Program-made: the position numbers and the translations under genes
Origin: an uncultured Rivibacter sp.
Lineage (GTDB): Bacteria; Pseudomonadota; Gammaproteobacteria; Burkholderiales; Burkholderiaceae
Assembly: GCA_946481025.1 (NCBI GenBank)
Contig: CAMLNA010000065.1
Location: forward strand, 1-23,167
Length of the DNA stretch: 23,167 nt
Reading direction: 5' to 3'
Notes under the pieces: model-generated
Database searches by the model: none
Told to the model about the DNA's origin: nothing
Seen by the model: the letters and a program-made list of their open reading frames with translations, nothing else
Shown: piece after piece, positions 1,995-19,166 of the stretch
Numbering within the stretch: the stretch's first letter is position 1
How the letters are laid out: every line of letters begins with the position of its first letter

Positions 1995-2017
1995 GGTCTC
2001 CGGTTCACGCGGAGACC
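1995..2017. terminator. Perfect 8-bp inverted repeat between convergent sppA and ureG
   Basis: GGTCTCCG at 1995-2002 and its exact complement CGGAGACC at 2010-2017 enclose a 7-base loop. The stem sits at the convergence point of sppA and ureG and covers the last codons and stop of ureG. It could act as a bidirectional terminator or as a 3'-end stabilising hairpin. No run of T follows on either strand, so intrinsic termination is not assured. Confidence 0.5.
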
Positions 2018-2655
2018 AGCAGCCCCTTGGTCTCGATGAAGCGCACCACTTCGTCGAGCCCGGCCCGGGTCTTGAGGTTGGTCATCGCATAGGGCCGGGT
2101 CGGCCGCATGCGTTTCGTGTCGGCCTCCATCACCGACAGGTCGGCACCCACGTGCGGCGCGAGGTCGGTCTTGTTGATGACGAAGAGGTCGCTCTTGGTG
2201 ATGCCCGGGCCGCCCTTGCGGGGGATCTTCTCGCCCGCGGCCACGTCGATCACGTAGATCGTGAGGTCGCTCAACTCGGGGCTGAAGGTCGCCGCGAGGT
2301 TGTCGCCGCCCGACTCGATGAACACGATGTCGGCATCGGGAAACCTCTGCAGCATGCGGTCCACCGCCTCGAGGTTGATGGACGCGTCTTCGCGGATGGC
2401 GGTGTGCGGGCAGCCGCCGGTTTCGACGCCCATGATGCGTTCCGGCTCCAGTGCGCCGGCCACGGTGAGCAGGCGCTGGTCTTCCTTGGTGTAGATGTCG
2501 TTGGTGACGACCACCAGGTCCCAGCGCTCGCGCATGGTCTTGCAGAGCATTTCCACCAGCGTGGTCTTGCCGGAACCGACCGGCCCTCCGACGCCTACCC
2601 GCAGCGGGGGCAGCTTCTTGGTGCGGTTGGGGATCGAGTGCAGCAGGGTGGTCAT
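2005..2655 (-). CDS. ureG: Urease accessory GTPase UreG
   Basis: A 216-residue SIMIBI-class GTPase that supplies energy and nickel for assembly of the urease metallocentre, working with UreE, UreF and UreD. The P-loop is GPVGSGKT at residues 24-31. The nickel-binding C-P-H motif is at 82-84 within [15 protein letters not shown]. The guanine-specificity NKTD motif lies near residue 170. The length is normal and no long His-rich N-terminus is present, unlike UreG of some other bacteria; UreE carries the His tail here. The start ATG at 2655 overlaps the ureF stop in an ATGA, so ureF and ureG are translationally coupled. It is the last gene of the accessory run ureE-ureF-ureG. Confidence 0.97.
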
Positions 2656-3371
2656 GAGCGGAAGAGTCGGGAGTACTGGGTTTCGTGCCGGGCCGACAGG
2701 ATGGCCAGGCCGGGTGAAAAGGACTGGCGCTCGCTGTCGGCCAACGCCAGGGCCGCATCCACTGCGGCGGGAATCGCCTCGGCCAGGGCGCCGAGGATGC
2801 GCTGGCCCGCGCTCTGGCCCAGCGGTACGGCCTTGATGGCGGCCTGCGCCATGTTCTCGGCCCAGCCGAAGGCAAAGGCCAGTGCCGCATCGCGCGGCGC
2901 GGCGGCGGTCAACGCGGCGGCCAGCGCGTAGGCCACCGGATAGCAGGGCGCCGGCTTCAGGCCCCGCAGCGCGGCGAGCGCCGAAGCCGGCGCGTCGGGG
3001 CGCAGCTTGAGCCACTCGACGAACGAGCGGCCCATCTGCTCGGCCTGCAGCCGCAACTCGGCGCTCTCGCGCGTGGTGAGCAGCCAGGTGTTGAGTTCGC
3101 CGATGCGGTCGAGGTCCTGCCGCCGCCACGCGGCCACCGCAACCCCCAGCACGGCCAGGTCGCAGCGCGCCAGCGTCAGCGTCAGCTGGTCGAGCAGCCA
3201 GCGGCGGGCATGGTCCTCATCGGTCACGAGGCCTGCCTCGACCGCGGCTTCCAGCCCCTCCGAGTAGCTGAAGCCGCCCACCGGCAAGGCCGGCGAGGCG
3301 AGCCACATCAGCTGCAGCAGGCTGGAGGCGGGCAGCGGCTCGGGCCGCGCCCTCAGGCGTCGCGGTTTCAA
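2652..3371 (-). CDS. ureF: Urease accessory protein UreF
   Basis: A 239-residue UreF, the mostly helical protein that binds UreD and UreG in the urease activation complex and gates GTP hydrolysis by UreG. The family signature is visible near the N-terminus as [16 protein letters not shown] (about residues 26-41), and the rest is Ala/Leu-rich helices as expected. The start is the rare codon TTG at 3371: it overlaps the ureE stop as TTGA, and no ATG or GTG lies between it and the conserved signature except an ATG (Met22) that would cut into the conserved region. Translation probably depends on coupling to ureE. With no ureD nearby, its usual partner must be encoded elsewhere or be missing. Confidence 0.95.
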
Positions 3372-3916
3372 GGGTGATGGTGGCCGTGGTGGTGGCCGTG
3401 ATCGTGGTGGTGTTCATGCCCGTGCTCGTGCTCGTGCTCATGGCCGTGGCCGTGGCCGTGACCGCCGGCATAGGCGCCGGACTCCGGCTCGAACGGCGCT
3501 TCGGCTTCGCTCACGATGAGGTGCATCTGGCGCAGCATGGCGGCCAGCACATGATCGGGCTCGAGTTTCAGGTGGTCGGGCTGCAGCTCCAGCGGGACGT
3601 GGCGGTTGCCCAGGTGGTAGGCCGCCCGCAGCAGGTCGAACGGCGAGCCGTGCTCGGCGCAGTGACGCACCACCAGCACCGGCTGCGCCGCGGGCTCCAC
3701 CCGCACCAGCGAGCCGTCTTCGACCACCAGCACGTCGCCGCCGCGCACCACCGCGCCGCGCGGCAGGAACACGCCGAGCAGGCGGCCGGTGCTGTCGGTG
3801 GCATCGAAACGGCTCTTCTGCCGCACGTCCCAATCGAGCACGACGGTGGCGGCGCGTTTCACGAGGGCCTGCGCGAGGCCGCGGCCCTGGGGAATGAGTT
3901 TGTTGACGCTGTGCAT
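3368..3916 (-). CDS. ureE: Urease accessory nickel metallochaperone UreE
   Basis: A 182-residue UreE, the nickel-carrying chaperone that delivers Ni2+ to apo-urease. It has the N-terminal peptide-binding domain ([20 protein letters not shown]) and the metal-binding domain with the LGNRHVP segment, whose histidine belongs to the conserved nickel site of the family. The last 29 residues hold 18 histidines mixed with Gly and Glu/Asp, an extended nickel-storage tail like that of Klebsiella UreE. ATG at 3916 is preceded by 126 bases shared with the divergent asmA gene, so this is the probable promoter region of ureEFG. Stop and ureF start overlap. Confidence 0.96.
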
Positions 3917-3958: not shown

Positions 3959-4042
3959 GGCCGCGCCGCTGATGGCAGGGGCAGGGGGCTGCGACGAAGG
4001 TGCAAGAAGCACGCCCATTCGACTCACCTGTCACGCAAGCCC

Positions 4043-6097
4043 ATGCCCTGGACGACGTCGCTCCGCCGCAACCGCTGGCTGCTGGTCCTGCTGGCCGCCG
4101 TGCTGCTGCTCGTCGTGGCCTTCAGCGTGCCGTGGCGGCTCAACTTCGCGCGCGACTGGATCGCCGAGCGCACCCAGGCCGCCACCGGCCGCGCGCTGCG
4201 GCTGGAGGGCGACATCTGGTGGCATTGGGGCCGCCTGGGGCGGCTCGAGGTGAACGGGCTGCGCTTCGCCAACCCGGCCTGGGCGGGCCGGCCGGACATG
4301 GTGAGCGCGCAATCGATCGATGCGCGCATCGCGTTGTGGCCGCTGCTCACGCAGCGCCGCCTGCAGATCGTCGAAGTGCGCATGCACCAGCCCGACGTCT
4401 GGCTCGAGAGCAATGCGCAGGGGCAGCGCAACTGGCTGCTCGACACGAAGCAGAGCGACGAGGGTTCGCGCATCGAACTGGGCCGGGTGTGGCTCGACAA
4501 CGGCGTGCTGCGCCTGCTGCAGCCGCACCTGCAGACGGACGTGCGGGCCAATTTCCAGAGCGTCGTGCAAGACACGAGGGCCCGGCTGCGGGTTGGAGCC
4601 GAAGGGCAATGGAACGGCCTGCCGCTGCGCGCCGCCGGCACCGGCGACGACGTGCTGCAGCTGCGCGAGGCCGACAAGCCTTACGGCCTGGACGTCGACG
4701 CTTCCATCGGCCGTACGCGCGTGCGCGCGGCCGGGCAGGTGACCGGCCTGCTGGCGCCCAAGGCGGCCGACCTGCGCATCGAGGTGCAGGGGCGCACGCT
4801 GGCCGAGTGGTATCGCATCGCCCACGTGGGCCTGCCCGAAACACCGGCCTACCAGACGGCCGGCCGGGTGCGGCTCGACCGCGGCGTGTGGTGGTACGAA
4901 GACTTCACCAGCCGGGTGGGCAGGAGCGACCTGTCCGGGCAGATCCGCTTCGAGCGGCGGCCCTCGCGGCCGTTCGTCGGCGGCCGGCTGCATTCGAAGC
5001 TGCTCGACCTCAACGACCTCGGTCCGGTGGTGGGCAAGACCACGAAGACGGTCACGGCCGGTCCGGCAGCGGCGCGGGCCTCGGAGGCCACCCCGGCACC
5101 GCCCGAGGCGGCCGCGTCACGCCCCGTGCAGCGGGCCTCGTCCGGCGCCTCCACCGCCCGCGTGAAGGGCGGCCGGGTGCTGCCGCAGCGCGGCTTCAGC
5201 GCCGAGAAGTGGGACACGCTCGACGCCGACCTTCAGTTCGAGGCCCAGGCCATCCGCAACTTCGGCTCGATGCCCTTCGACAACCTCAAGACCCGCGTCG
5301 TGATGGACGACCGCAAGCTCACCCTCGATCCCCTGCGGCTGGGCTTCGCCGGCGGCAACGTCGCCGGCTCGCTGCAGATCGACGGCCGCGTGCAGCCCAT
5401 GGCCGCGCGGCTCGGCGCGCAGTTCAACCGCCTGCAGCTCGAGCAGCTGCTGCCGCGGGTGCGCAACACCCGCGCCGCCTTCGGCCAGCTCAACGGCCGC
5501 GCCACGCTGGCGGGGCGCGGCAACTCGTATGCACAGATGCTGGGCAGCTCCCAGGGCGAGATGCAGCTGGCCATGGGCCGGGGGCGCATCAGCAACCTGC
5601 TGATCGAACTGGTGGACCTCGACCTGGCCGAAGCGCTGAAGTTCCTGGTCACCGGCGACCGCAACATCCCGGTGCGCTGCGCGCTGGCCGACGTGGGCTT
5701 CGAGCGCGGCGTCATGAGCTCGCGCGCCGTGGTGTTCGACACGGCCGACACGGTCATCGATGCCCGCGGCACGGCCGACCTGTCCAGGGAAACGCTCGAC
5801 GTGAAGGTCACGCCGCTGCCCAAGGACAGGAGCCCGCTGACCCTGCGTGTGCCGTTCACCGTGCAGGGCAGCTTTGCCGACCCGAGCGTGAAGCCGGAGA
5901 TGGGCAAGCTGCTGGCACGCGGCGGCGGCGCCTTGCTGCTGGGCGCCCTGGTCAACCCGCTGGCCGCGCTGATCCCGCTGATCGAGACCGGCCCCGGCGA
6001 GGACAGCGACTGCTCGGCCCTGATGGCCCGCGCCCGAGGCGAAGGCGTGAAGGCGATCGACGCCGAGCCGCCGGCCGCGGGGCCGGGCAAGCGCTAA
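4043..6097 (+). CDS. AsmA family protein
   Basis: A 684-residue inner-membrane-anchored protein of the AsmA group, which in known members spans the periplasm and is linked to outer-membrane assembly and lipid transport. An N-terminal membrane helix is at about residues 10-30 after RRNR. It is followed by the typical start of the AsmA domain (NFARDWIAERTQAATGRAL) and long beta-strand-rich sequence. A low-complexity Ala/Pro-rich stretch occurs at roughly 335-370. The C-terminal AsmA-like module includes the GNVAGSLQIDGRV and VPFTVQGSFADPSVKPE segments and ends with a hydrophobic GALLLGALVNPLAALIPLIE. ATG at 4043 was chosen because the membrane helix follows it directly; the frame stays open upstream only across antisense ureE. 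It lies on the opposite strand inside the urease cluster and converges on ureC with an 8-base gap. Confidence 0.88.
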   Translation: MPWTTSLRRNRWLLVLLAAVLLLVVAFSVPWRLNFARDWIAERTQAATGRALRLEGDIWWHWGRLGRLEVNGLRFANPAWAGRPDMVSAQSIDARIALWPLLTQRRLQIVEVRMHQPDVWLESNAQGQRNWLLDTKQSDEGSRIELGRVWLDNGVLRLLQPHLQTDVRANFQSVVQDTRARLRVGAEGQWNGLPLRAAGTGDDVLQLREADKPYGLDVDASIGRTRVRAAGQVTGLLAPKAADLRIEVQGRTLAEWYRIAHVGLPETPAYQTAGRVRLDRGVWWYEDFTSRVGRSDLSGQIRFERRPSRPFVGGRLHSKLLDLNDLGPVVGKTTKTVTAGPAAARASEATPAPPEAAASRPVQRASSGASTARVKGGRVLPQRGFSAEKWDTLDADLQFEAQAIRNFGSMPFDNLKTRVVMDDRKLTLDPLRLGFAGGNVAGSLQIDGRVQPMAARLGAQFNRLQLEQLLPRVRNTRAAFGQLNGRATLAGRGNSYAQMLGSSQGEMQLAMGRGRISNLLIELVDLDLAEALKFLVTGDRNIPVRCALADVGFERGVMSSRAVVFDTADTVIDARGTADLSRETLDVKVTPLPKDRSPLTLRVPFTVQGSFADPSVKPEMGKLLARGGGALLLGALVNPLAALIPLIETGPGEDSDCSALMARARGEGVKAIDAEPPAAGPGKR

Positions 6098-6105
6098 GGC
6101 CAGCC

Positions 6106-7832
<1,727 letters not shown>

Positions 7833-7833
<1 letters not shown>

Positions 7834-8138
7834 CACAGCGCCCCCTGTACCAGGCCGCGGAAGCCCCACACCTCGCGGTCGCCGGCGTAGTCCACCAGCT
7901 CCACCGTGCGCTGCTGCCCCGGCTCGAAGCGCACCGCGGTGCCCGAGGCGATGTGCAGCCGCATGCCGCGGGCCGCGGCGCGGTCGAACTTCAGCGCGCC
8001 GTTGGTCTCGGCGAAGTGGTAGTGCGAGCCCACCTGGATGGGCCGGTCTCCGGTGTTCTCGACCACCAGCGTGAGCGTGCGCCGGCCGGGGTTGAGGTCG
8101 TGTTCGCCGGGGTCGGTGAAGAGTTCGCCGGGGATCAT
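7833..8138 (-). CDS. ureB: Urease beta subunit UreB
   Basis: A 101-residue urease beta subunit, a structural part of the (alpha-beta-gamma)3 enzyme. The start [19 protein letters not shown] and the motif [11 protein letters not shown] are characteristic. I chose the ATG at 8138 over one eight codons upstream (8162). It begins with the conserved MIPGE sequence and has AGGAAG about nine bases before it, while the upstream ATG would overlap the preceding small gene. The stop overlaps the ureC start (ATGA). Separate ureA and ureB genes are the usual bacterial arrangement, in contrast to the fused form of Helicobacter. Confidence 0.97.
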
Positions 8139-8143
8139 GGGGC

Positions 8144-8323
8144 TCACTTCCTGCCGATCCACCAGGCGGCCGCGGCGACCAGGAGTGCCAGCGCGACGAA
8201 GCCGAACACGTCGGTCGCATGCCAGTGCGCCGCACCGGGTTGGTGATGGCCTTCATGGGCCTGGGCGGCCACGCTCGTGGCGAGCAGGGCGGCGCCTCGG
8301 AGGAGGGCGGCAGCTTGTTTCAT
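8144..8323 (-). CDS. Small His-rich single-pass membrane protein inside the urease operon
   Basis: A 59-residue protein between ureA and ureB, ending five bases before the ureB start. It has an N-terminal signal peptide ([22 protein letters not shown]), then a short His-rich segment ([16 protein letters not shown]) and one C-terminal transmembrane helix (about residues 37-56) ending in Trp-Ile-Gly-Arg-Lys. The ATG at 8323 has GGAG nine bases upstream. The expected topology is a short periplasmic His-rich loop in front of a membrane anchor. It occupies the place where some Burkholderiales carry ureJ (a HupE/UreJ-type nickel permease of about 200 residues), but is far too short to be a permease. 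A role in nickel binding at the membrane is only an inference from the histidines and the location. Confidence 0.75.
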
Positions 8324-8383: not shown

Positions 8384-8686
8384 CTATGCAATCGGCTGGT
8401 GCACGGTCACCAACTTGGTGCCGTCGGGGAAGGTGGCTTCGACCTGGATCTCCGGGATCATTTCCGCCACGCCCTCCATCACGTCGGCGCGGCCGAGCAC
8501 GGTCTTGCCTTCGCTCATGAGGGCCGCCACCGACTTGCCGTCGCGGGCGCCTTCCATGATGGCCGCGGTGATCAGGGCCACCGCCTCCGGGTAGTTGAGC
8601 CTGAGCCCGCGGGCCTTGCGGCGCTCGGCCAGCAGGGCCGCGGTGAAGATGAGGAGCTTGTCTTTTTCGCGAGGCGTGAGTTCCAT
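8384..8686 (-). CDS. ureA: Urease gamma subunit UreA
   Basis: A 100-residue urease gamma subunit. It begins [20 protein letters not shown] and contains the conserved [13 protein letters not shown] and GRADVMEGV segments; length and ends match the family exactly. It is the first gene of the structural operon ureA - small membrane gene - ureB - ureC, read leftward. In most proteobacteria ureD precedes ureA, but here only a 125-base spacer and then a divergent sensor-kinase gene are found. A -10-like TAAGAT on the - strand (8719 to 8714) lies about 28 bases before the ATG. Confidence 0.97.
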
Positions 8687-8728: not shown

Positions 8729-8747
8729 ATGCGAAACGGCCATGCGA
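8729..8747. promoter_or_regulatory. Direct repeat in the ureA / sensor-kinase divergent spacer
   Basis: ATGCGA occurs at 8729-8734 and again at 8742-8747, 13 bases apart start to start. A small hairpin, AGGC-ATA-GCCT, follows at 8758-8768. The region separates the ureA start (8686) from the sensor-kinase start (8812), so it must hold the control sites of both. Whether these repeats bind the LuxR-type regulator is unknown. Confidence 0.2.
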
Positions 8748-8811
8748 CCGAAGGCGTAGGCATAGCCTTTGCACCCTGCCTGGGCTCGGTATCAACCCTT
8801 ACCCGCTCGGC

Positions 8812-11800
8812 ATGGAAAGCATCAATCTCACCGCCGAGTCCGCCCCCTCGCCCCAAGCGCCCGTCTCCGGCGAGGCGGTGCAGCGCGTCATCAAGATCCG
8901 CCGCGACTACAACACCTGGGTCGCGCGCGAGACCATGGAGGACTACGCGCTGCGTTTCACGCCGCGCGCCTTCCGCAAGTGGTCGGAGCTGCGGGTGGCC
9001 AACACCGCCTTCGGCGCGGCCTCTTTCCTGGTGCTCGAGGCGGTGGGAGCGACGCTGCTGGTGCAGTACGGCTTCATCAACGCGTTCTGGGCCATCGTCG
9101 CCACCGGCCTCATCATCTTCCTGGCCGGCCTGCCCATCAGCCACTACGCGGCCCGCCACGGGGTCGACATGGACCTGCTCACGCGCGGCGCCGGCTTCGG
9201 CTACATCGGCTCGACCATCACCTCGCTCATCTATGCGAGCTTCACCTTCATCTTCTTCGCGCTCGAGGCGGCCATCATGGCCTACGCGCTCGAGCTGGCC
9301 TTCGACATTCCGCCGGCGCTGGGCTACCTGATCTGCGCGCTGGTGGTCATCCCGCTGGTCACCCACGGCGTCACCGTCATCAGCCGGCTGCAGGTGTGGA
9401 CCCAGCCGCTGTGGCTGGTGCTGCTGGTGCTGCCCTTCGTCTACGTGCTCAAGGAAGACCCCCACGTGCTGGCCGGGCTGGTGAACTACGGCGGGGACAA
9501 CCACCAGGGGGCCCGGTTCGACCTGCATCTCTTCGGCGCCGCCATGACGGTGGGCATCGCGCTCATCACGCAGATGGGCGAGCAGGTGGACTACCTGCGC
9601 TTCATGCCCGAGCGCACGGCGAGCAACCGCTTCCGCTGGCTGGCCGGCATGCTGATCGGCGGCCCCGGCTGGGTGGTGCTGGGGGTGGTGAAGATGCTGG
9701 GCGGCGCACTGCTGGCCTACCTGGCCATCAGCCACGCCGTGCCGCCTTCGCGCGCGGTGGACCCGAACCAGATGTACCTCGCCGCCTACGAGTACGTCTT
9801 CCCCACGGTCGGCTGGGCGGTGGCGGCCACCACGGTGTTCGTCGTGATCTCGCAGCTCAAGATCAACGTCACCAACGCCTATGCGGGCTCGCTCGCGTGG
9901 AGCAACTTCTTCTCGCGCCTCACCCACAGCCACCCGGGGCGCGTGGTGTGGGTGGTGTTCAACACGCTCATCGCGCTGATGCTGATGGAGCTGGAGGTCT
10001 TCCAGGCGCTGGGCGGCGTGCTCGGGCTGTACTCCAACATCGCCATCTCCTGGATGATGGCCGTGGTGGCCGACCTGGTGGTCAACAAGCCGCTGGGCCT
10101 GTCGCCTTCTGGCATCGAGTTCAAGCGGGCGCACCTGTACGACGTGAACCCGGTCGGGGTGGGCGCCATGGGCGTGGCGTCGGTGCTGTCGGTGGCGGCC
10201 CACCTGGGTGTATTCGGCCCCGGGGCGCAGGCATTCTCGGCAGCCATCGCGATGGTCACCGCCTTCGTCACCGCGCCGCTCATCGCCTGGTGGACACGGG
10301 GCCGCTACTACATCGCGCGGCGGCCCGAGCCTTCGCTGGTCGCGACGGGCTCGCAAGGTGGCTACCCGCGCCTCAGGCGCTGCTGCATCTGCGAGCGCGA
10401 ATACGAAAGCGACGACATGGCGCACTGTCCGGCCTACCAGGGGCCGATCTGCTCGCTGTGCTGCTCGCTCGACGCGCGCTGCGACGACCTCTGCAAGCCC
10501 GACGCGCGCCTGTCGGTGCAGTGGAACGGCGCCCTGCGCGCGGTGCTGCCGCGCGCCATCTGGCCCTACCTCGACACCGGCCTCGGCCACTACCTGCTGG
10601 TGATGGCGGTGGTGGTGCCCCTGCTGGGCCTGCTGCTGGGGCTCATGTACTACCAGGAAATGCGTGTGCTGGGCGAGCAGGCGGCGGCGCATGCGCCGGC
10701 GCTCAGGCTCACCTTCGTGAAGGTGTATGCAGCGCTGCTGCTGGTGGCGGGCATCGTGGCCTGGTGGCTGGTGCTCACCCACAAGAGCCGGCAGGTGGCG
10801 CAGGAAGAATCGAACCGGCAGACGCACCTGCTGATGCGCGAGATCGAGTCGCACAAGCGCACCGACCTGCAGCTGCAGCACGCCAAGCGGGACGCCGAGC
10901 GCGCGCAGCACGCTGCCGAACTCGCCAACCAGGCCAAGAGCCGCTACATCACCAACATCAGCCACGAGTTGCGCACGCCGCTCAACAGCATCCTCGGCTA
11001 CGCCCAGCTGCTCGAGGAGGACGACGCCATGCCGCCCAGGCGCAAGCAGGCGGTCGGCGTGATCCGCCGCGGCGGCGACCACCTGCTCTCGCTCATCGAA
11101 GGCACGCTCGACATCGCCCGCATCGAAGGCGGCAAGCTGACGCTCGACGTGAAGCCGATGCGCTTTCGCGAGTGCGTGGAGGAGATCGCGCGGATGTTCG
11201 AGCTGCAGGCCTCGGCCAAGGCCATCGACTTCCGCCACGACCTGGGCGAGCTGCCGGGCGTGGTGCGGGCCGACGAAAAGCGGCTGCGGCAGATCCTCAT
11301 CAACGTGCTGGGCAACGCGGTCAAGTTCACCAGCGCGGGCCATGTGGCTTTCCGCCTGCACTATTCGGGCGAGATGGCACGCTTCGAGATCGAGGACTCC
11401 GGTCCCGGCATGGGCCCGCAGGAGATGGAGCACATCTTCGAGCCCTTCGTGCGCGGCTCGGCACACACCGGCGGATCGCTCGCCGGCGGCTCGGGCCTGG
11501 GCCTCACCATCAGCAAGATGCTCACCGACCTGATGGGCGGTGAAATGACCGTGAGCAGCACGCCGGGGGTGGGCACGCTGTTCCGCATCAAGCTCTTCCT
11601 GCCGCAGGTGCGTGCGGCGGTGGCCGAGCGCGAGCTGCCGCGCACCGGCCGCACCGGCTACCTTGGTGAGCGCAAGCGCGTGCTGGTGGTGGACAACGAA
11701 GAGGTCGACCGCGAGTTGCTGGCCAGCGTGCTGCAGCCGCTGGGCTTCGAGCTGCAGCAGGCGGCCAACGGCGAAGACTGCCTGGCGCTGCTCGAATCCG

Positions 11801-12300
11801 GCTTCATGCCCGACGCCATCCTGATGGACCTCGCGATGCCGGGGCTCGACGGCTGGGGCACCCTGCGCCAGATCCGCCTGCGCGGCCTGTCCGATGCGCC
11901 GGTGGCCATCGTGTCGGCCAACGCCTTCGACAAGGGGCTCGAGAACGACGTGGGCGTCCGGGCCGAAGATTTCATCGTGAAGCCGGTACGCGTGAGCGAG
12001 CTGCTCGACTGGCTGGGAGCGCGCCTGTCGCTGCAGTGGCTGCATGCCGCGCCACCCCCGGCCGTGGCCAGGCCCGCCGTCACGGCCTATCCCCCCGCAC
12101 AGCACCTGCGCGCGCTCGAAGAACTGGTCACCCTCGGCTACTTCCGCGGCATCGTCAGCAAGCTCGACGAGATCGAAGCGGCCCATCCCGACAGCGCGGC
12201 TTTCGTGGACAAGCTGCGCCTGCTCGCACGCGGCTTCCAGCTCGAAGCCATGAGCACCCTCATCCAACAAGCCCTGCCCGATGTCGAACCGACTGCCTGA
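8812..12300 (+). CDS. NCS1 permease-like hybrid sensor histidine kinase with receiver domain
   Basis: A 1162-residue transporter-like sensor kinase. Residues about 20-500 form a multi-pass membrane domain that resembles purine-cytosine permeases (NCS1 family), with about twelve hydrophobic segments. Then comes a cytoplasmic linker with nine cysteines (C524-C561). Two further membrane helices at about 594-614 and 633-657 and a short coiled coil lead into the kinase. The H-box has H718 in SHELRTPLNSILGY, and the ATPase domain has the N-box (N835), DSGPGMG (D862) and GSGLGLTIS (about 893-901). The receiver has acidic D961, phospho-acceptor D1006 and K1057. A helical tail of about 80 residues ends it. 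ATG 8812 was chosen because an upstream GTG (8692) would reach into ureA's leader. It is divergent from ureA, and its end overlaps the response regulator gene by 20 bases. The ligand is unknown; a nitrogen base or allantoin-like compound is an inference. Confidence 0.88.
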   Translation: MESINLTAESAPSPQAPVSGEAVQRVIKIRRDYNTWVARETMEDYALRFTPRAFRKWSELRVANTAFGAASFLVLEAVGATLLVQYGFINAFWAIVATGLIIFLAGLPISHYAARHGVDMDLLTRGAGFGYIGSTITSLIYASFTFIFFALEAAIMAYALELAFDIPPALGYLICALVVIPLVTHGVTVISRLQVWTQPLWLVLLVLPFVYVLKEDPHVLAGLVNYGGDNHQGARFDLHLFGAAMTVGIALITQMGEQVDYLRFMPERTASNRFRWLAGMLIGGPGWVVLGVVKMLGGALLAYLAISHAVPPSRAVDPNQMYLAAYEYVFPTVGWAVAATTVFVVISQLKINVTNAYAGSLAWSNFFSRLTHSHPGRVVWVVFNTLIALMLMELEVFQALGGVLGLYSNIAISWMMAVVADLVVNKPLGLSPSGIEFKRAHLYDVNPVGVGAMGVASVLSVAAHLGVFGPGAQAFSAAIAMVTAFVTAPLIAWWTRGRYYIARRPEPSLVATGSQGGYPRLRRCCICEREYESDDMAHCPAYQGPICSLCCSLDARCDDLCKPDARLSVQWNGALRAVLPRAIWPYLDTGLGHYLLVMAVVVPLLGLLLGLMYYQEMRVLGEQAAAHAPALRLTFVKVYAALLLVAGIVAWWLVLTHKSRQVAQEESNRQTHLLMREIESHKRTDLQLQHAKRDAERAQHAAELANQAKSRYITNISHELRTPLNSILGYAQLLEEDDAMPPRRKQAVGVIRRGGDHLLSLIEGTLDIARIEGGKLTLDVKPMRFRECVEEIARMFELQASAKAIDFRHDLGELPGVVRADEKRLRQILINVLGNAVKFTSAGHVAFRLHYSGEMARFEIEDSGPGMGPQEMEHIFEPFVRGSAHTGGSLAGGSGLGLTISKMLTDLMGGEMTVSSTPGVGTLFRIKLFLPQVRAAVAERELPRTGRTGYLGERKRVLVVDNEEVDRELLASVLQPLGFELQQAANGEDCLALLESGFMPDAILMDLAMPGLDGWGTLRQIRLRGLSDAPVAIVSANAFDKGLENDVGVRAEDFIVKPVRVSELLDWLGARLSLQWLHAAPPPAVARPAVTAYPPAQHLRALEELVTLGYFRGIVSKLDEIEAAHPDSAAFVDKLRLLARGFQLEAMSTLIQQALPDVEPTA

Positions 12301-13225
12301 CCGTTCGAATGCCGACGTGGTGCTCATCGTCGACGACGTGCCCGACAACCTGTCGGTGCTGCACGACGCGCTCGACGAGTCCGGCTACACCGTGCTGGTG
12401 GCCACCAGCGGCGAAACCGCGTTGCAGCGTGCCGCGCAGGCGCTGCCCGACGTGGTGCTGCTCGACGCGGTGATGCCCGGCATGAGCGGCTTCGAGGTGG
12501 CGCGGCGGCTCAAGGCCGAGGCCGCAACGGCGCACATTCCCATCATCTTCATGACCGGCCTCACCGACACCGAGCATGTGGTGGCCGCATTCGAAGCGGG
12601 CGGCGCCGACTACGTGACCAAGCCGATCCGGCCCAAGGAAGTGCTGGCGCGCATCGCGGCCCACGTGCAGAGCGCGCGCCACACGCGGCAGGCGCGCAAT
12701 GCGCTCGATGCCTTCGGGCATGCCGCCGTGACGGTGCGCGCGGCCGACGGCCGCCTCGTGTGGCAGACGCCGCTGGCGCGCAGCCTGCTCACCCGCTACT
12801 TCGCAAGTGCCGAGCCGCAGCTGCCGGAAGCGGCAGCCGAATGGGTGCAGGCCCAGTCGCAGGCGCAGCTGGCAGGGCTGGGCACCTCCACCTTCACCGT
12901 GGCGCACGGCGCCAAGCGCCTGGTGCTGGCGCTGCACGAGCAGACCGGCGACGGCGAATGGCTGGTCGTGATGCGCGAGGCCTCGGACGCCGCGGTGGTC
13001 GAAGCCATGACCCACACCTTCCGGCTCACGCTGCGCGAGGCCGAAGTGCTCTACTGGGTGGTGAAGGGCAAGACCAACCGCGACATCGCCGACATCCTCG
13101 GCATGAGCGCGGCCACGGTGAAGAAGCACCTGGAGCACGTGTTCGAGAAGCTCGGCGTGGAAACGCGCACCGCGGCGGCGGGCCTGGCGATCGGCAAGGT
13201 GAGGCAGCTGGCGGCGAGCGGGTGA
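12281..13225 (+). CDS. LuxR/NarL-type response regulator with central PAS-like region
   Basis: A 314-residue DNA-binding response regulator. The receiver domain covers residues 12-128: acidic pocket D18/D19, phospho-acceptor D62 (VVLLDAVMPGMSG) and lysine K114 (YVTKPIRP). A central part at about 140-235 looks PAS-like (ALDAFGHAAVTVRAADGRLVW) and is not found in typical NarL proteins. The C-terminal LuxR helix-turn-helix covers about 248-302 (LTLREAEVLYWVVKGKTNRDIADIL, shown here by its recognition helix MSAATVKKHLEHVFEKLG). The start lies inside the end of the sensor kinase gene, a 20-base overlap, so the two are almost surely a cognate pair. With two receivers in the system (kinase D1006 and D62 here), the phosphate path could be branched. 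Its targets are unknown; the divergent urease operon is the obvious candidate. Confidence 0.93.
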   Translation: MSNRLPDRSNADVVLIVDDVPDNLSVLHDALDESGYTVLVATSGETALQRAAQALPDVVLLDAVMPGMSGFEVARRLKAEAATAHIPIIFMTGLTDTEHVVAAFEAGGADYVTKPIRPKEVLARIAAHVQSARHTRQARNALDAFGHAAVTVRAADGRLVWQTPLARSLLTRYFASAEPQLPEAAAEWVQAQSQAQLAGLGTSTFTVAHGAKRLVLALHEQTGDGEWLVVMREASDAAVVEAMTHTFRLTLREAEVLYWVVKGKTNRDIADILGMSAATVKKHLEHVFEKLGVETRTAAAGLAIGKVRQLAASG

Positions 13226-13231
13226 GTGCGC

Positions 13232-14131
13232 CTACCCTGCCTTCGGCCTGCGCAACATCACCAGCTCGAACAGCGCCTGCGCCGCCATCGAAAGCGACCG
13301 GTCGCGCCGGCGGATCACGAACAGCTCGCGCTTCAATCCGGGCGCGAACAACGGTCGTGTCACCAGCGCCGGGTGCTCGAAATGGAACAGCGTCAGCGCG
13401 GGCACGACGGTGATGCCCAGGCCTGCGCGCACCATGCCGGCCACGGTGCTCAGCTGCTCCAGCTCGAGCACCGAATGGATCTGCGCCGGCCGGATGGCGG
13501 TGTCGATGTGCTGGCGCACGCTGCTGTTGCGGGCGAGGTGAACGAAGGGCTGGCCGGGCAGGTCGGCCAGGCCGATGCGGCGCTTGTTCGCGAAAGGATG
13601 GTCGCCGCGGCACACCACGTGGAAGCGGTCTGAACAGAAAGGCTGCGCCAGCAGCTCCGGCGCGCTGGCGCGCACGGCGGCCAGCGCGAAGTCGGCCCGG
13701 CCTGCACGCACGCGCTCCACGCACTCGTCGGACAACGCGTCGGCCACGTCGAGTTCGATGTGCGGATGGCGCGCATGGAACTGCGCCAGCACCTCGGGCA
13801 GCCATCCCGCGGCCAGGGCCGGCAGCGCGGCCAGCGACACCCGGCCGCGCCGGCGCGCCACATGGTCGCCCAGGTCAGCCACCGTGACCTCCACGTCGCG
13901 CAGCAGGCGCAAGGCGCCGTCGAGGAAGAGGCTGCCTTCGGCCGTGAGCTCCACCGTGCGGGTGGTGCGGTCGAACAGCCGTGCGCCGAGGGCCGATTCC
14001 AGCGAGCGGATCAGCGCGCTGAAGGCCGGCTGCGACAAGTGGCACCGCGATGCGGCCCGGGTGAAGTTGCGCGTCTCGGCCAGCGCCGTGAAAGCGCGCA
14101 GCTGGCGCGTCGACAGGTTCGGCTCACTCAT
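13232..14131 (-). CDS. LysR family transcriptional regulator
   Basis: A 299-residue LysR-type regulator. The winged helix-turn-helix is at residues about 8-66 (LRAFTALAETRNFTRAA, LSQPAFSALIRSLE, LGARLFDRTTRTVELTAEG), and the rest is the two-lobed effector-binding domain. Length is normal. The effector-binding half starts with the usual RVSLAALP strand. It is divergent from the atuA-like gene with 98 bases between starts, the common layout for a LysR regulator and its target operon. It ends six bases from the stop of the convergent response regulator gene. The inducer is not known, but is probably a substrate of the catabolic genes downstream of atuA. Confidence 0.95.
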   Translation of the reverse strand: MSEPNLSTRQLRAFTALAETRNFTRAASRCHLSQPAFSALIRSLESALGARLFDRTTRTVELTAEGSLFLDGALRLLRDVEVTVADLGDHVARRRGRVSLAALPALAAGWLPEVLAQFHARHPHIELDVADALSDECVERVRAGRADFALAAVRASAPELLAQPFCSDRFHVVCRGDHPFANKRRIGLADLPGQPFVHLARNSSVRQHIDTAIRPAQIHSVLELEQLSTVAGMVRAGLGITVVPALTLFHFEHPALVTRPLFAPGLKRELFVIRRRDRSLSMAAQALFELVMLRRPKAG

Positions 14132-14145
14132 TTGTCAGGCAGATC

Positions 14146-14167
14146 AATTCATTCAAACAAACGAATT
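14146..14167. promoter_or_regulatory. Imperfect dyad, candidate LysR operator
   Basis: AATTCATT (14146-14153) and AACGAATT (14160-14167) form an inverted repeat that matches at seven of eight positions around a 6-base spacer. It is strikingly AT-rich for this genome and sits between the divergent lysR and atuA-like starts, 15 bases upstream of the lysR ATG. A LysR protein that represses its own gene and activates the divergent operon would bind here. A -10-like TAGAGT follows at 14189-14194 on the + strand, with no good -35 box. Confidence 0.45.
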
Positions 14168-14229
14168 CTCCTTTCAACGTCGTACTCCTAGAGTGAGGTC
14201 CATCCCGCGCTTTTTTGGCCCGAAGCCTC

Positions 14230-15576
14230 ATGACATCACCCCTGCTCGTCGGCAACGCGGCCGGCTTTTCCGGCGACCGCACCGACGCCGCCCGCCCGGT
14301 GGTGGACACGCTCATCGCCCGCGGCGGCCCGGCGGTGCTGATCTTCGAGACGCTGGCCGAACGCACGCTGGCCCTGGCGCAACTGGCCCGGCAGGCCGAC
14401 CCGCAAGCCGGTTACGAGCCGCTGCTGGTGGACATGCTGGCGCCCGTGCTGGCCGACTGCCTGGCCCACCGCATCCGCATCGTCGGCAACTTCGGCGCGG
14501 CCAACCCGCAGGCCGCGGCGCGCCGGCTGCTGCGGCTGGCCGGCGAGCTGCAGCTGCGCCGCCCCAAGGTCGCCGTGGTGAGCGGCGACGACCTGGCCGG
14601 GCCCGGGCACGAGGCCCCGCTGCGCGAGGCGCTGGGCCCGACCGCGGCCGGCCTGCAGATCGCCAGCGCCAACGCCTACCTGGGCGCGCAGGCCATCGCC
14701 GCCGCGCTGCGCGAGGGCGCCGACATCGTGGTCACCGGCAGGGTGGCCGACCCTTCGCTCACCGTGGGCCCGGCGCTCGCGCACTTCGGCTGGGCCGAAG
14801 ACGACTGGGACCGCCTGGCCGGCGCCACCATGGCCGGCCACCTTCTCGAATGCGGCGCGCAGGTGTGCGGCGGCTACTACGCCGACCCCGGCTTCAAGGA
14901 CGTCCCGGACCTGGCCCATGTGGGCTATCCCATCGCCGAGCTGTTCGACGACGGCAGCTGCCTCGTCGGCAAGGCCGCGGGCACGGGTGGCTGCGTCGAT
15001 GAACACACGGTCAAGGAGCAGCTGCTGTACGAGCTGCACGACCCCTTGGCCTACCTCACGCCCGACGTGGTGGCCGACATCGGCGAGGCGCGCGTCGAAG
15101 CGGCCGGCCCCGACCTCGTGCGCCTGTGGGGCGTGCGCGGCCATGCCCGGCCGGCCACGCTGAAGGTCAACGTGTTCCACCCGCACGGCTGGCTGGCCGA
15201 AGGCGAGATCTCGTATGCCGGCCGCGGCGCCGAGGCGCGGGCCCGGCTGGCCGCCGAGGTGCTGCGGTCGCGGCTCGCCGGCTGCGGGCCGCTGCGCGTC
15301 GACCTGATCGGCGTCGCCAGCGTGTTCGCCGACGACGCCGGCCGCTGGCTCGCCACGCAGCCGCCGGGCGATGCACGCGACGTGCGCCTGCGCGTCGCGA
15401 TGAACCACGACGACAAGCGCACCGCCGAGCGCCTGCTGCGCGAGGTGACGGCCCTCTACACCTGCGGGCCGGCCGGCGGCGGCGGCGTGCGCACCGCGCT
15501 GCGCCAGCGGCTGGGCACGGTGTCGTGCCTGGTGCCGCGCGAGCGCGTGCCGCAGACCTGGGAGTTCATCGAATGA
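14230..15576 (+). CDS. AtuA family (DUF1446) protein, acyclic terpene utilisation-like
   Basis: A 448-residue protein of the AtuA/DUF1446 family. The name comes from the Pseudomonas citronellol/geraniol utilisation cluster, but the reaction of AtuA itself has not been assigned to my knowledge. Family landmarks are the N-terminal GNAAGFSGDR, SANAYLGAQ, the strongly conserved VVTGRVADPSLTVGPAL, and GKAAGTGGCVDEHTVKEQLL. No signal peptide is seen, so it is cytoplasmic. ATG 14230 was chosen over a TTG five codons upstream because the conserved sequence begins right after it. The gene stops within the start of the next one (ATGA overlap), which encodes the domain that is fused to this one in longer AtuA proteins. 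It likely starts the LysR-controlled operon. An actual role in terpene breakdown is not supported: no other atu genes are present. Confidence 0.88.
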   Translation: MTSPLLVGNAAGFSGDRTDAARPVVDTLIARGGPAVLIFETLAERTLALAQLARQADPQAGYEPLLVDMLAPVLADCLAHRIRIVGNFGAANPQAAARRLLRLAGELQLRRPKVAVVSGDDLAGPGHEAPLREALGPTAAGLQIASANAYLGAQAIAAALREGADIVVTGRVADPSLTVGPALAHFGWAEDDWDRLAGATMAGHLLECGAQVCGGYYADPGFKDVPDLAHVGYPIAELFDDGSCLVGKAAGTGGCVDEHTVKEQLLYELHDPLAYLTPDVVADIGEARVEAAGPDLVRLWGVRGHARPATLKVNVFHPHGWLAEGEISYAGRGAEARARLAAEVLRSRLAGCGPLRVDLIGVASVFADDAGRWLATQPPGDARDVRLRVAMNHDDKRTAERLLREVTALYTCGPAGGGGVRTALRQRLGTVSCLVPRERVPQTWEFIE

Positions 15577-15947
15577 AGGCGAACGAAACGCTGGCCGTGC
15601 CGCTGCACTGCCTGGCTCACGGCCGCACCGGCGACAAGGGCGATCGCTCCAACATCAGCGTCATCGCCTGGCACCCGGCGCTGTACCCGCTGCTGGCGGA
15701 GCAGGTCACCGAGGCAGCGGTGGCGCGCCAGTTCGCGCATCGCCGCCCGCAACGCGTGGTGCGCCACCTGCTGCCCCACCTGCACGCGATGAACTTCGTG
15801 CTCGACGGCGTGCTCGACGGCGGCGTGAACGACGCGCTCAACCTCGACAGCCACGGCAAGGCCCTGTCGTTCCTGCTGCTCGACCTGCCGGTGGCCGTGC
15901 CGCAGGCCCTGCGGCCGCTGCTCAAGAACCCCCCACCTTTCGCCTGA
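15573..15947 (+). CDS. AtuA-related C-terminal domain protein
   Basis: A 124-residue protein matching the C-terminal part of long AtuA proteins. The signature is AHGRTGDKGDRSNISVIAW (residues 15-33), followed by the MNFVLDGVLDGGVNDALNLDSHGKA region shown here by NFVLDGVLDGGVN and LNLDSHGKALS. It starts at 15573 in an ATGA overlap with the DUF1446 gene, so the two are translated together and probably form one complex. In other bacteria the two parts are one polypeptide; the split form is also common in Burkholderiales. Function is unknown beyond this pairing. Confidence 0.87.
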   Translation: MKANETLAVPLHCLAHGRTGDKGDRSNISVIAWHPALYPLLAEQVTEAAVARQFAHRRPQRVVRHLLPHLHAMNFVLDGVLDGGVNDALNLDSHGKALSFLLLDLPVAVPQALRPLLKNPPPFA

Positions 15948-15975
15948 TCGACCCACACCACAACGGAGACAACGC

Positions 15976-16947
15976 ATGACCCCGCTCACCCGCCGCCCGC
16001 TGCTCGCGCTGGCCGCTGCCATGGCCTTTGGCCAGCCTTTCGCCGCGTTGGCGGCCTACCCCGAAAAGCCGATCACCTTCGTCGTGCCCTTCGCGGCCGC
16101 CAGCGCCACCGACCAGCTCGCACGCGCGCTGGGCCAATCCGTCACCGCGCAGACGAAGCAGTCCGTGGTGGTGGACAACAAGGCCGGCGCCAGCGGCATG
16201 CTGGCCGCGCAGCAGGCGGCCCGCGCACCGGCCGACGGCTACACCGTGCTCATCACCACCAACACCACGCAGGCGGCCAACCAGCACCTCTACAAGAAGC
16301 TGGCCTACGACCCGGTGAAGGACTTCGCGCCGGTCACCGGCCTGGGCAAGGGCGGGCAGGTGATGGTGGTGCGCGCCGATGCGCCGTTCAAGAACGTGGC
16401 CGACGTGGTGGCCCGGGCGAAGCAGCAGCCCGGCAAGCTGAGCTTCGGCAGCGGCAGTTCGTCGAGCCGGGTGGCCGGCGAGATGTTCCAGCAGCTCTCG
16501 GGCACCGAGATCCTGCACGTGCCCTACAAGAGCAACCCGCAGGCGCTGACCGACCTGATGGGCGGCCAGTTCGACTTCATGATCACCGACACGGCAACCG
16601 GCCTGCCGCAGGTGAAGGCCGGCAAGCTGAAGGCGCTGGGCTATTCGACGCAGAAGCGCAGCCCGCTGCTGCCCGACGTGCCCACCATCGCCGAAGCCGG
16701 CGTGCCCGGCTACGACATGGGCTACTGGTTCGCCGCCTACGTGCCGGCCGGCACGCCGCAGCCGGTGGTGGCGCGGCTGAACGAGCTGCTCACCCAGGCC
16801 GCGAAGAGCGCCGAGGCCCGGGCCTTCTTCGATGGCAGCGGCGTGGAGGCGTGGACCACCACGCCGGACGAGCTGGCGAAGTTCCAGGCGGCCGAAACGC
16901 AGAAGTGGGGCAAGGTCATCAAGGCCGCCGGCATCGAGCCCGAGTAA
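15976..16947 (+). CDS. Bug family (tripartite tricarboxylate transporter) solute-binding protein
   Basis: A 323-residue periplasmic substrate-binding protein of the Bug/TctC family, which is greatly expanded in Burkholderiales. A signal peptide (residues 1-26, ending FAALAA) precedes the typical mature start YPEKPITFVVPFAA. Other family segments are VVVDNKAGASGMLAAQ, ADGYTVL, FGSGSSSS and LPDVPTIAEAGVPGYD. Length is normal. GGAGAC lies eight bases before the ATG. Binding proteins of this family often bind carboxylates; the ligand here is unknown. No TctA/TctB membrane genes are in the window, which is usual for orphan Bug proteins. The 28-base gap to the AtuA pair suggests one operon. Confidence 0.93.
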   Translation: MTPLTRRPLLALAAAMAFGQPFAALAAYPEKPITFVVPFAAASATDQLARALGQSVTAQTKQSVVVDNKAGASGMLAAQQAARAPADGYTVLITTNTTQAANQHLYKKLAYDPVKDFAPVTGLGKGGQVMVVRADAPFKNVADVVARAKQQPGKLSFGSGSSSSRVAGEMFQQLSGTEILHVPYKSNPQALTDLMGGQFDFMITDTATGLPQVKAGKLKALGYSTQKRSPLLPDVPTIAEAGVPGYDMGYWFAAYVPAGTPQPVVARLNELLTQAAKSAEARAFFDGSGVEAWTTTPDELAKFQAAETQKWGKVIKAAGIEPE

Positions 16948-17042: not shown

Positions 17043-19166
17043 ATGAAGACACTGCATCGCAGCTCGGTCGGCGCCGCGGCGCTGGCCCTCGTGCTGGCCG
17101 CCTGTGGCGGCGACGACGACGCCCCCGCCACGCCCGCCGCGACCCCGCGCGTCACGCTGGCGATCACCGCGACCGAGGACTTCGCCGGCAGCTACGGCAC
17201 CGTGGGCGCCTATGAGCGCGTCACCGGCACGCTGAGCGGCGAGGTGGATCCTCATGACCCGAAGAACGCGGTGATCCAGGACCTGAAGCTTGCTCCGGTC
17301 AATGCCCGCGGCATGGTCGAGTTCAAGGCCGACTTCGTGATGCTCAAGCCCAAGGACATGAGCCGCGCCAGCGGCGTGCTGCGCTATGACGCACCCAACC
17401 GCGGCAACATCCTCACCATGCCCAACCCCGCCGCATCGCCGAGCGACGCGGTGTACCTCGAGCGCGGCTACGTGCTGCTGTATTCCGCCTGGCAGGGCGA
17501 CGTGCCCAAGAGCAACCCGAACCGCCTCACCGTCACCGTGCCGGTGGCGAAGAACCCGGACGGCTCGTCGATCACAGGCCCCTACAAGACCGAGCTCGTG
17601 CCGGCTGCGGCCACGCCGGTGATGAGCCTGCCCGGCGGGGTGTTCAACGGCAGCATGATTCCCTACGAGCCGGCCAGCCTCGACAACACCTTGCCCGGCC
17701 ATTCGCTCACCCGCCGCCGCAACGAAACCGACCCGCGCATCGTCATCCCCGCGAGCGACTGGAAGTTCGCCAGCTGCGACACGGCGGCCGACCCCTTCCC
17801 CGGCACGGCCGACGCGACCAAGGTCTGCCTGAAGGGCGGCTTCGACCCGCAATACCTCTACGAACTCGTCTATGTGGCCAAGGACCCGAAGGTCATGGGC
17901 GTGGGCCTGGCGGCGCTGCGCGACACGGTGAGCTTCTTCCGCGGCAAGGCGGCCGACAGCGACGGCAACCCCAACCCGCTGGCCGGACGCATCACCCATG
18001 CCATCGGGCAGGGCACCTCGCAGTCCGGCAACGCGATGAAGACCTTCCTGCACCTGGGCTTCAACCAGGCGCTCGACGGCGGCAAGGTGTTCGACGGCGT
18101 CTATGCCCATGTGGCCGCGCGCCAGACCCACATCAACACCCGCTTCGCCGTGCCCGGCGGCGGCGGCGGCCTGCGCACCGACCACACTGCGTTCGGCCAG
18201 ACCGCACCGCGCGCGCTCGCCGCCGACTATGTGGACGAGCTCACCGGCCGGCAGGGGGGCGTGATGAAGCGCTGCGCGGCCACCAGCACCTGCCCGAAGT
18301 TCTTTCTCGGCCTCTCGGGCACGGAGTTCTGGCAGCTGCAGGGCTCACCGGTGCTGACCGATGCCTTCGGCCAGCGCGACCTCGTGCAGCCGGACAACGC
18401 GCGCGTCTACTACTACGCCAGCACGCAGCACGGGGGCCCCGGAGGCACGGCCGGCATCAACTACACGCCCACGCGCAACGTGTACCCGGCCGGCACGGTG
18501 GTGCACTTCAACGACACCTTCCGCGCGCTGTTCATCGCGCTGGAGGACTGGGTGGTGCGCGACGTGGCGCCGCCCGCGAGCCAGGTGCCCAAGCTCGCCG
18601 ACGGCACGCTGGCGCGGCCGGACCAGCTGGTGTTCCCCACCATGCGGGGCCTGGAGTGGCCGGTGAACGGCACGCCCACTTCGGTGCCCGAATTCGACTA
18701 CCTCGCGCGCTACAACGGCTTCCCGCTGCTCGACTTCGGGCCGGAATACAAGCCGCAGGACGAGTCGGGCATCGCGACGCTGCTGCCGCCGGCGTATCTC
18801 AACAGGGACTACGCCATCCTCGTGCCGCAGGTGGATGCGAGCACCGGGCTCACCCGGGCCGGCATCCGCAGCGTGGAGGCGAGGGTGCCGCTGGGCACCA
18901 GCATCGAGTTCAACTACCCGGCGGCCGCCGGCGTGGTGGACCTGTCCAACCTCACCGGCGCCTTCATCCCCTTCCACAAGACCCGGGCCCAGCGGCTCGC
19001 GGCGGGTGACACGCGGCCTTCGCTCGAGGAGCTGTACGCCGACCAGGCGGGGTATGTGGCGGCGGTGACGGCCGCGGCCGACGAGCTGGTGGCGCAGCGG
19101 TTGTTGCTGAGAAGGGATGCGGATGCGATCGTGGTGCGCGCGGCGGGGCAGGTGGTGTTGCCTTGA
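17043..19166 (+). CDS. Large lipoprotein of the alpha/beta-hydrolase (Abhydrolase_10-like) type
   Basis: A 707-residue exported lipoprotein. Residues 1-20 are a lipoprotein signal with lipobox LVLAAC (C21), followed by the acidic tether GGDDDAPATPAATP. The body resembles the alpha/beta-hydrolase domain family known as Abhydrolase_10, best seen at GQGTSQSGNAMKTFL (S326 or S328 as nucleophile) and NQALDGGKVFDGVYAH. Late landmarks are FLGLSGTEFWQL and LYYYASTQHGG-type sequence (VYYYASTQHGG). AGGAGA lies six bases before the ATG. Its 95-base distance from the Bug gene and shared strand suggest it belongs to the LysR-controlled cluster, perhaps hydrolysing an ester or lactone outside the cytoplasm whose product the Bug protein binds. 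Aspartates follow the lipid cysteine from position +3, not +2, so an outer-membrane place is more likely than inner-membrane retention. Substrate unknown. Confidence 0.75.
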   Translation: MKTLHRSSVGAAALALVLAACGGDDDAPATPAATPRVTLAITATEDFAGSYGTVGAYERVTGTLSGEVDPHDPKNAVIQDLKLAPVNARGMVEFKADFVMLKPKDMSRASGVLRYDAPNRGNILTMPNPAASPSDAVYLERGYVLLYSAWQGDVPKSNPNRLTVTVPVAKNPDGSSITGPYKTELVPAAATPVMSLPGGVFNGSMIPYEPASLDNTLPGHSLTRRRNETDPRIVIPASDWKFASCDTAADPFPGTADATKVCLKGGFDPQYLYELVYVAKDPKVMGVGLAALRDTVSFFRGKAADSDGNPNPLAGRITHAIGQGTSQSGNAMKTFLHLGFNQALDGGKVFDGVYAHVAARQTHINTRFAVPGGGGGLRTDHTAFGQTAPRALAADYVDELTGRQGGVMKRCAATSTCPKFFLGLSGTEFWQLQGSPVLTDAFGQRDLVQPDNARVYYYASTQHGGPGGTAGINYTPTRNVYPAGTVVHFNDTFRALFIALEDWVVRDVAPPASQVPKLADGTLARPDQLVFPTMRGLEWPVNGTPTSVPEFDYLARYNGFPLLDFGPEYKPQDESGIATLLPPAYLNRDYAILVPQVDASTGLTRAGIRSVEARVPLGTSIEFNYPAAAGVVDLSNLTGAFIPFHKTRAQRLAAGDTRPSLEELYADQAGYVAAVTAAADELVAQRLLLRRDADAIVVRAAGQVVLP

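What the first reader, a model, noticed from the sequence alone, without database searches (positions are those of the whole stretch)
8812..13225. Permease-like sensor kinase and LuxR regulator divergent from urease
The kinase gene joins an NCS1/cytosine-permease-like domain (residues about 20-500) to a complete histidine kinase and receiver, and its end overlaps a LuxR-type regulator gene. Known transporter-kinase fusions such as CbrA use an SSSF-type module; an NCS1-type module would point to purines, pyrimidines, allantoin or hydantoins. Several of these are degraded to urea, the substrate of the divergent operon. Inference: this is a transporter-type receptor that links a nitrogen source to urease expression. 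I do not know of a characterised example.
Basis: partly seen in the sequence, partly recalled or inferred. Interest (0 to 1): 0.8.

Follow-up and report, generated by a model that had tools for sequence, protein, structure and literature searches.

The report
Urea-linked transporter-like sensor kinase pair
A bacterial sensor built from a transporter-like protein, and the gene switch encoded beside it, appear to turn on urea uptake and urea-splitting genes through a shared DNA signal; the signal molecule is probably urea or a small amide, which has not been tested.

Summary
Window 8812-12300 encodes a 1162-aa protein: an NCS1-type membrane domain, a module of eight cysteines invariant in 123 of 123 aligned sequences, a histidine kinase and a receiver. 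It overlaps by 20 bp a REC-LuxR regulator and is divergent from ureA. No Pfam model hits the membrane part, but profile-profile comparison and the predicted fold place it with NCS1 (CodB, Mhp1), not SSSF. The urease link goes beyond adjacency: in 250 sampled genomes, 41 of 43 with this domain carry urease, against 61 of 207 without it. A palindrome, TACG-N8-CGTA, lies in 39 of 41 tested urtA upstream regions of kinase loci and in 0 of 20 from kinase-free genomes. The ureA-kinase gap of the window has a one-mismatch copy at 8743-8758, the only one in the window. A sister branch sits beside a UrtA-like transporter and formamidase. Function is untested. I rate it a new variant of the transporter-kinase receptors (CbrA, CrbS).

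The parts
8812..12300 (+). hybrid sensor kinase gene (P0001, 1162 aa)
8935..10311 (+). NCS1-type membrane domain, residues about 42-500
10381..10497 (+). eight-cysteine module, residues 524-562, probably metal-binding (inference)
   Evidence: C524 C527 C539 C547 C550 C551 C557 C561 all invariant in 123 of 123 aligned sequences, window included
10933..11133 (+). HisKA, phospho-acceptor His718
11272..11601 (+). HATPase_c catalytic domain
11680..12009 (+). receiver domain of the kinase, Asp1006
12281..13225 (+). response regulator gene, REC plus LuxR/GerE HTH (P0002, 314 aa)
   Evidence: a relative lies within 450 bp after the kinase in 73 of 80, 41 of 43 and 31 of 33 loci
8743..8758 (.). operator-like palindrome TGCG-ACCGAAGG-CGTA between ureA and the kinase, one mismatch to TACG-N8-CGTA
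   Evidence: only match with at most one mismatch in the 23167-base window; P 0.035 in mononucleotide shuffles of the 125-bp gap
8384..8686 (-). ureA, urease gamma
7833..8162 (-). ureB, urease beta (family match begins at residue 9 of this ORF)
6106..7830 (-). ureC, urease alpha
3368..3916 (-). ureE
2652..3371 (-). ureF
2005..2640 (-). ureG (start approximate)
   Evidence: translation from 2652, family match from its residue 17

Best explanation
The pair is a urea-responsive two-component system. The NCS1-type domain acts as a receptor for urea (in the sister branch, for formamide or other short amides). Binding is relayed through the eight-cysteine module and the long helical linker to the kinase, and phosphate passes, perhaps by way of the kinase's own receiver, to the LuxR-type regulator. 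The regulator then binds a palindrome (TACG[C/T]C-N4-G[G/A]CGTA and close variants) upstream of urtABCDE and in the ureA-kinase gap, switching on urea uptake and urease together. Shown by sequence: domain order, NCS1 relationship, conservation, linkage, and the palindrome with its association with the system. Inferred: ligand, direction of control, phosphoryl route, the regulator as the protein that binds the palindrome, metal in the cysteine module.
For: Co-occurrence: 41 of 43 genomes with the domain have UreC, 61 of 207 others (Fisher 1.4e-16; relatedness not corrected). Co-location within the stretch fetched: ure and/or urt in 56 of 80 closest loci (80 kept of 261), 35 of 43 loci of an even sample of the order, 29 of 33 new loci of an even sample of the phylum. 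Palindrome: perfect TACG-N8-CGTA in 39 of 41 linked urtA upstream regions (match of 300 bits or more and at least 250 bp upstream; 0.16 expected in mononucleotide shuffles); in 32 of 37 kinase-urtA2 gaps, 0.10 expected; at most one mismatch in 22 of 45 ureA-kinase gaps, window included, 0.77 expected, and in 10 of 29 after thinning, 0.3 expected. Genome-wide, 12 of 15 TACGCC-N4-GGCGTA sites in 40 genomes lie 152-231 bp before the UrtA match. Six more urtA genes of kinase genomes chosen without a known site: 4 perfect (G569 and G573 about 10 kb from the kinase, G149 and G243 unlinked; G085 and G129 without); kinase-free genomes: 0 of 20 perfect, 3 with one mismatch. Recognition-helix consensus nearly the same in both branches: TVkKHLEH (first Lys commonest but under 60%) vs TVNKHLEH. 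Ligand class: neighbours urtABCDE, FmdA homologues in 46 of 232 loci held (two of these overlap; one scanned, over the NCBIfam formamidase cut-off), AmiS/UreI and FmdA in L212. Pocket: by alignment the TM6 aromatic that stacks on cytosine in CodB (Phe204) is Leu251, with Glu152, Gln254 and Asn352 invariant.
Against: No experiment. No palindrome in 20 of 45 ureA-kinase gaps even at two mismatches. The window copy is imperfect, and P 0.035 is weak alone. The strict TACGCC-N4-GGCGTA form is absent from 23 of 37 kinase genomes tested (looser forms occur in some). Two of four fully unlinked urtA genes chosen without a known site lack it (G085, G129). In genomes of the formamidase-linked branch the main urt-ure operon lacks it: 0 of 10 urtA upstream regions (one had only 232 bp upstream), so control of urease is not general to the family. 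24 of 80, 8 of 43 and 4 of 33 loci have no ure/urt gene in the stretch fetched, some of them at contig ends. No genome is held for the window, so its own urtA was not seen. Two relatives (G099, G106) live in genomes where no UreC was found.
Confidence: 0.72

Rival explanations
1. One reading: the NCS1 domain senses a purine, pyrimidine, allantoin or hydantoin, and urease is induced because these are degraded to urea.
For: NCS1 relationship; the bacterial NCS1 proteins characterised before MetT are described as taking nitrogen heterocycles (PMC13390362, passages).
Against: The recurring neighbours identified are urea and short-amide genes. The TM6 aromatic of the heterocycle site is replaced by Leu251 (Leu in 114 of 123, otherwise Met or Ile). 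The NCS1 member MetT takes acyclic metformin, so the family is not bound to rings. Purine and pyrimidine genes were not searched for systematically.
Confidence: 0.12
2. The system does not sense urea itself but nickel, redox or nitrogen status, read by the eight-cysteine module; the NCS1 domain is only a membrane scaffold.
For: All eight cysteines invariant in 123 of 123 aligned sequences; urease is a nickel enzyme (established knowledge).
Against: Putative pocket residues Glu152, Gln254, Glu257, Asp260, Lys350 and Asn352 are just as invariant. Formamidase and the UrtA-like transporter, genes of the sister branch, are not known to me as nickel proteins.
Confidence: 0.1
3. The palindrome belongs to another regulator of urea genes, and the kinase pair merely travels with the cluster.
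For: No binding experiment; in some genomes urtA with the palindrome is far from the kinase (G087, G149, G243).
Against: A perfect site before urtA was found only where the kinase is present (39 of 41 linked; 0 of 20 kinase-free), and it lies in the kinase's own upstream gap in 32 of 37 cases.
Confidence: 0.05

Closest known systems
CrbS/CrbR of Pseudomonas and Vibrio (SLC5-STAC hybrid kinase plus LuxR-type regulator)
   Same: Transporter-like domain, hybrid kinase, separate LuxR-type regulator, imperfect inverted-repeat operator at the promoters of the matching metabolic genes (PMC5715377, passages)
   Different: SLC5 (SSSF) membrane domain with STAC, acetate genes; here NCS1 with an eight-cysteine module, urea and amide genes
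CbrA/CbrB
   Same: Transporter domain fused to a kinase, described as a transceptor (PMC13022988, passages)
   Different: SLC5, STAC and PAS, histidine as ligand; CbrA lacks the C-terminal REC that CrbS has
NCS1 transporters CodB and Mhp1
   Different: Stand-alone sodium-coupled transporters of cytosine or hydantoin; by alignment the sodium-site Thr278 of CodB corresponds to invariant Lys350 here (inference)
UrtABCDE-linked kinases noted in genome papers (Dechloromonas aromatica; Ectopseudomonas guguanensis)
   Same: Kinase plus receiver or LuxR regulator listed beside urtA (PMC2907700; PMC13296017; passages)
   Different: In the passages seen: no NCS1 domain, no palindrome and no function assigned; sequence identity with the present family not tested

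Membership tests
NCS1 (nucleobase:cation symporter-1) fold family | Profile similarity to NCS1 transporters | tested here: met
   hhalign of 49 kinase domains vs 17 NCS1 proteins (17 of 19 loci fetched by PF02133; two dropped by length or composition filter): probability 99.2, E 1.3e-19, 421 columns. Single-sequence scans: no Pfam hit at E<=10 and no PF02133 match at the kinase loci
NCS1 (nucleobase:cation symporter-1) fold family | NCS1/LeuT-type fold | tested here: met
NCS1 (nucleobase:cation symporter-1) fold family | Cation-coupled transport of a nucleobase-like substrate | not testable with these tools
   no biochemical data
SLC5-STAC sensor kinases (CbrA, CrbS) | SSSF/SLC5 membrane domain | tested here: not met
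   hhalign vs 20 SSF proteins: probability 2.1
SLC5-STAC sensor kinases (CbrA, CrbS) | STAC domain after the transporter | tested here: inconclusive
   residues 521-703 gave only weak unrelated Pfam hits below cut-off; whether the library holds a STAC model was not checked
Hybrid sensor kinase with NarL/LuxR-type response regulator | HisKA, HATPase and REC in one protein, with an adjacent REC-GerE regulator | tested here: met
Urease operon regulator | Acts on ureA or urt promoters | tested here: inconclusive
   Palindrome statistics in favour; no expression data

The most novel reading that the evidence does not exclude
The NCS1-type domain is a true urea or short-amide receptor, a ligand class that the passages read here do not assign to any NCS1 protein, which signals through a new eight-cysteine transducer module to a kinase. 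It founds a widespread class of receptor that controls urea and amide uptake and breakdown through a TACG-N8-CGTA operator, with two branches of slightly different operators (urease-linked and formamidase-linked).
Probability: 0.5. Interest if true: 0.82.

Novelty: new variant of a known kind. Interest (0 to 1): 0.72.

Why it matters
Urea is a major nitrogen source in soil, water and wastewater (general knowledge), yet a bacterial urea receptor of this kind did not show in the paper searches. The domain occurs in about one in eight sampled genomes of the phylum (38 of 299, leaving out three weak or fragmentary hits). A defined palindrome and a defined pair of genes make the question of how these bacteria sense external urea or amides directly testable, and show another transporter family, beside SLC5, turned into sensor kinases.

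Tried and rejected

Literature: in ten searches I saw no paper describing an NCS1-type sensor kinase or its role in urea regulation. I saw listings, and opened passages of seven papers; most listed papers were not opened, some listings were cut (20 of 314, 8 of 43, 12 of 78), and subscription journals are mostly missing. JGI and NCBI automatic names already call the domain purine-cytosine permease-like.

Selection notes: of the ten further urtA upstream regions (8 of 10 perfect), four (G001, G087, G572, G578) were chosen after a strict site was already known there, so only the other six count (4 of 6), and two of these six (G569, G573) lie about 10 kb from the kinase rather than unlinked; the Fisher values include the biased ones and are not used. 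The 20 kinase-free upstream regions were 20 of 59 available; kinase-free means no match at E<=1e-20. In the tree 77 of 157 rows were kept after thinning, and the root is unsure (long outgroup branch).

Full report
WHAT IS THERE. The kinase gene runs from 8812 to 12300 and the regulator gene from 12281 to 13225, overlapping by 20 bp; ureA lies on the other strand with a gap of 125 bp. The kinase has HisKA, HATPase and receiver domains, the regulator a receiver and a LuxR-type HTH. His718 and Asp1006 are invariant in 123 aligned sequences, window included. Urease genes ureA, B, C, E, F, G were confirmed; I did not look for ureD specifically.

POCKET, BY INFERENCE. CodB holds cytosine between Trp108 and Phe204, with Gln105, Ala207 and Asn280 near, and sodium by Asn275, Thr278 and Thr279 among others (PMC9379551, passages). 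By sequence alignment (TM6 and TM8 anchored by me on the DxxR and Tyr motifs) these fall on Phe148, Leu251, Thr145, Gln254, Asn352, Ser347, Lys350 and Ile351. Residue 251 is Leu, Met or Ile in all 123; Gln254, Lys350, Asn352 and Glu152 (aligned with Gln121 of Mhp1) are invariant. A lost aromatic sandwich fits a small acyclic ligand, and a lysine in the sodium site suggests that the domain is not sodium-driven. This is alignment, not superposition.

CYSTEINE MODULE. C524, C527, C539, C547, C550, C551, C557 and C561 are invariant in all 123 aligned sequences, even in L120 and L121, whose kinase parts are about 30% identical to the query. Pfam and structure searches name nothing with confidence. 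Its place between transporter and kinase matches that of STAC in CbrA and CrbS, so I take it as the transducer; metal binding is inferred.

COMPANY IT KEEPS. Among 250 genomes drawn evenly from the order of the nearest relative, 43 have the domain, 102 have UreC and 100 have UrtA-like proteins at E<=1e-80. Domain and UreC: 41 of 43 vs 61 of 207; domain and UrtA-like: 41 of 43 vs 59 of 207. Relatedness is not corrected for. Of 38 genomes mostly chosen because urease is not next to the kinase, 34 still have UreC. Urease or urt genes lie in the stretch fetched in 56 of 80 closest loci (80 kept of 261), 35 of 43 of the order sample and 29 of 33 new loci of the phylum sample. In the phylum sample 41 of 299 genomes matched, 38 after leaving out three weak or fragmentary hits.

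TWO BRANCHES. In one, including the window, the pair sits by ureA and/or upstream of urtABCDE. In the other it is divergent from a UrtA-like transporter (the one scanned passes the UrtA cut-off), in most cases followed by formamidase; FmdA homologues occur in 46 of 232 loci held, two of which overlap, and the one scanned exceeds the FmdA cut-off. Two further loci (L212, L214) have AmiS/UreI-like and FmdA-like genes. The nearest stand-alone relative seen in the phylum sample (L216, about 30-33% identical; PF02133 E 3.6e-9) lies near a binding protein of the PF13433 type and an AmiR/ANTAR-type protein. Context labels cluster on the tree (25 changes, shuffled mean 43.6), but they do not form two clean clades and the root is unsure.

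PALINDROME. The gap between kinase and UrtA-like gene holds TACG-N8-CGTA in 32 of 37 cases (0.19 expected in mononucleotide, 0.10 in dinucleotide shuffles). The same palindrome lies in 39 of 41 tested urtA upstream regions of kinase loci (0.16 expected; some rows are close relatives). In ureA-kinase gaps, window included, 22 of 45 have it with at most one mismatch (0.77 expected); 20 of 45 do not have it even at two mismatches. The window copy is TGCGACCGAAGGCGTA at 8743-8758, the only match with at most one mismatch in the window (P 0.035 for the gap).

PALINDROME ACROSS GENOMES. TACGTC-N4-GACGTA gives 18 sites in 15 of 24 kinase genomes and none in 6 kinase-free ones; 15 of the 18 lie in the kinase-UrtA-like gap (positions; sites). 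TACGCC-N4-GGCGTA gives 15 sites in 14 of 40 genomes (37 with the kinase, 3 without), and 12 of the 15 lie 152-231 bp before a UrtA match, while the backward control pattern occurs 89 times; 23 of the 37 kinase genomes have no such strict site. Over the 250-genome sample the same pattern gives 43 sites, 3 of them before urtA, all in kinase genomes. Among six further urtA genes picked without a known site, 4 have a perfect copy, including G149 and G243, where no ure/urt gene was found near the kinase; G085 and G129 lack it; 0 of 20 in kinase-free genomes have it, 3 with one mismatch. Main urt-ure operons of the formamidase-linked branch lack it (0 of 10).

MECHANISM. Best reading: external urea or short amide binds the NCS1-type domain; the signal passes by the cysteine module and helical linker to His718, perhaps by Asp1006, then to the regulator, which binds the palindrome and raises uptake and breakdown genes. 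Sequence shows the parts and the palindrome; ligand, direction and phosphoryl route are inferred.

COMPARISON AND NOVELTY. It works like CrbS/CrbR (SLC5 hybrid kinase, LuxR regulator, inverted-repeat operator) but is not a member: the SLC5 feature fails. Database names already mark the permease likeness, and two genome papers list a kinase and regulator beside urtA without the NCS1 domain or a function in the passages seen. A recent NCS1 member, MetT, takes acyclic metformin (PMC13390362, passages), so non-ring ligands are possible. I score it a new variant of a known kind.

Noticed in passing
window 4027-6097 (+): A 690-aa ORF without a Pfam hit splits the urease cluster between ureC and ureE; L002 and L024 show a similar gap of several kb there.
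   Followed up: partly
window 13232-16947: Divergent LysR regulator, AtuA-like pair (PF07287, PF23544) and a TctC-type binding protein.
   Followed up: no
window 17043-19166 (+): 707-aa protein with an Abhydrolase_10 domain.
   Followed up: no
L120:9123-13310 and L121:9016-13260: Relatives of 1396 and 1415 aa with longer, different kinase parts, in genomes where no UreC was found (G099, G106); possibly a different ligand.
   Followed up: partly
L212:6346-10156: Non-hybrid relative of the kinase followed by a receiver-kinase protein, FmdA and AmiS/UreI: a third wiring of the same sensor domain.
   Followed up: partly
L219:5472: A second perfect palindrome in G521 just before the CN_hydrolase (amidase-type) domain of an ORF, suggesting a wider amide regulon.
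   Followed up: partly
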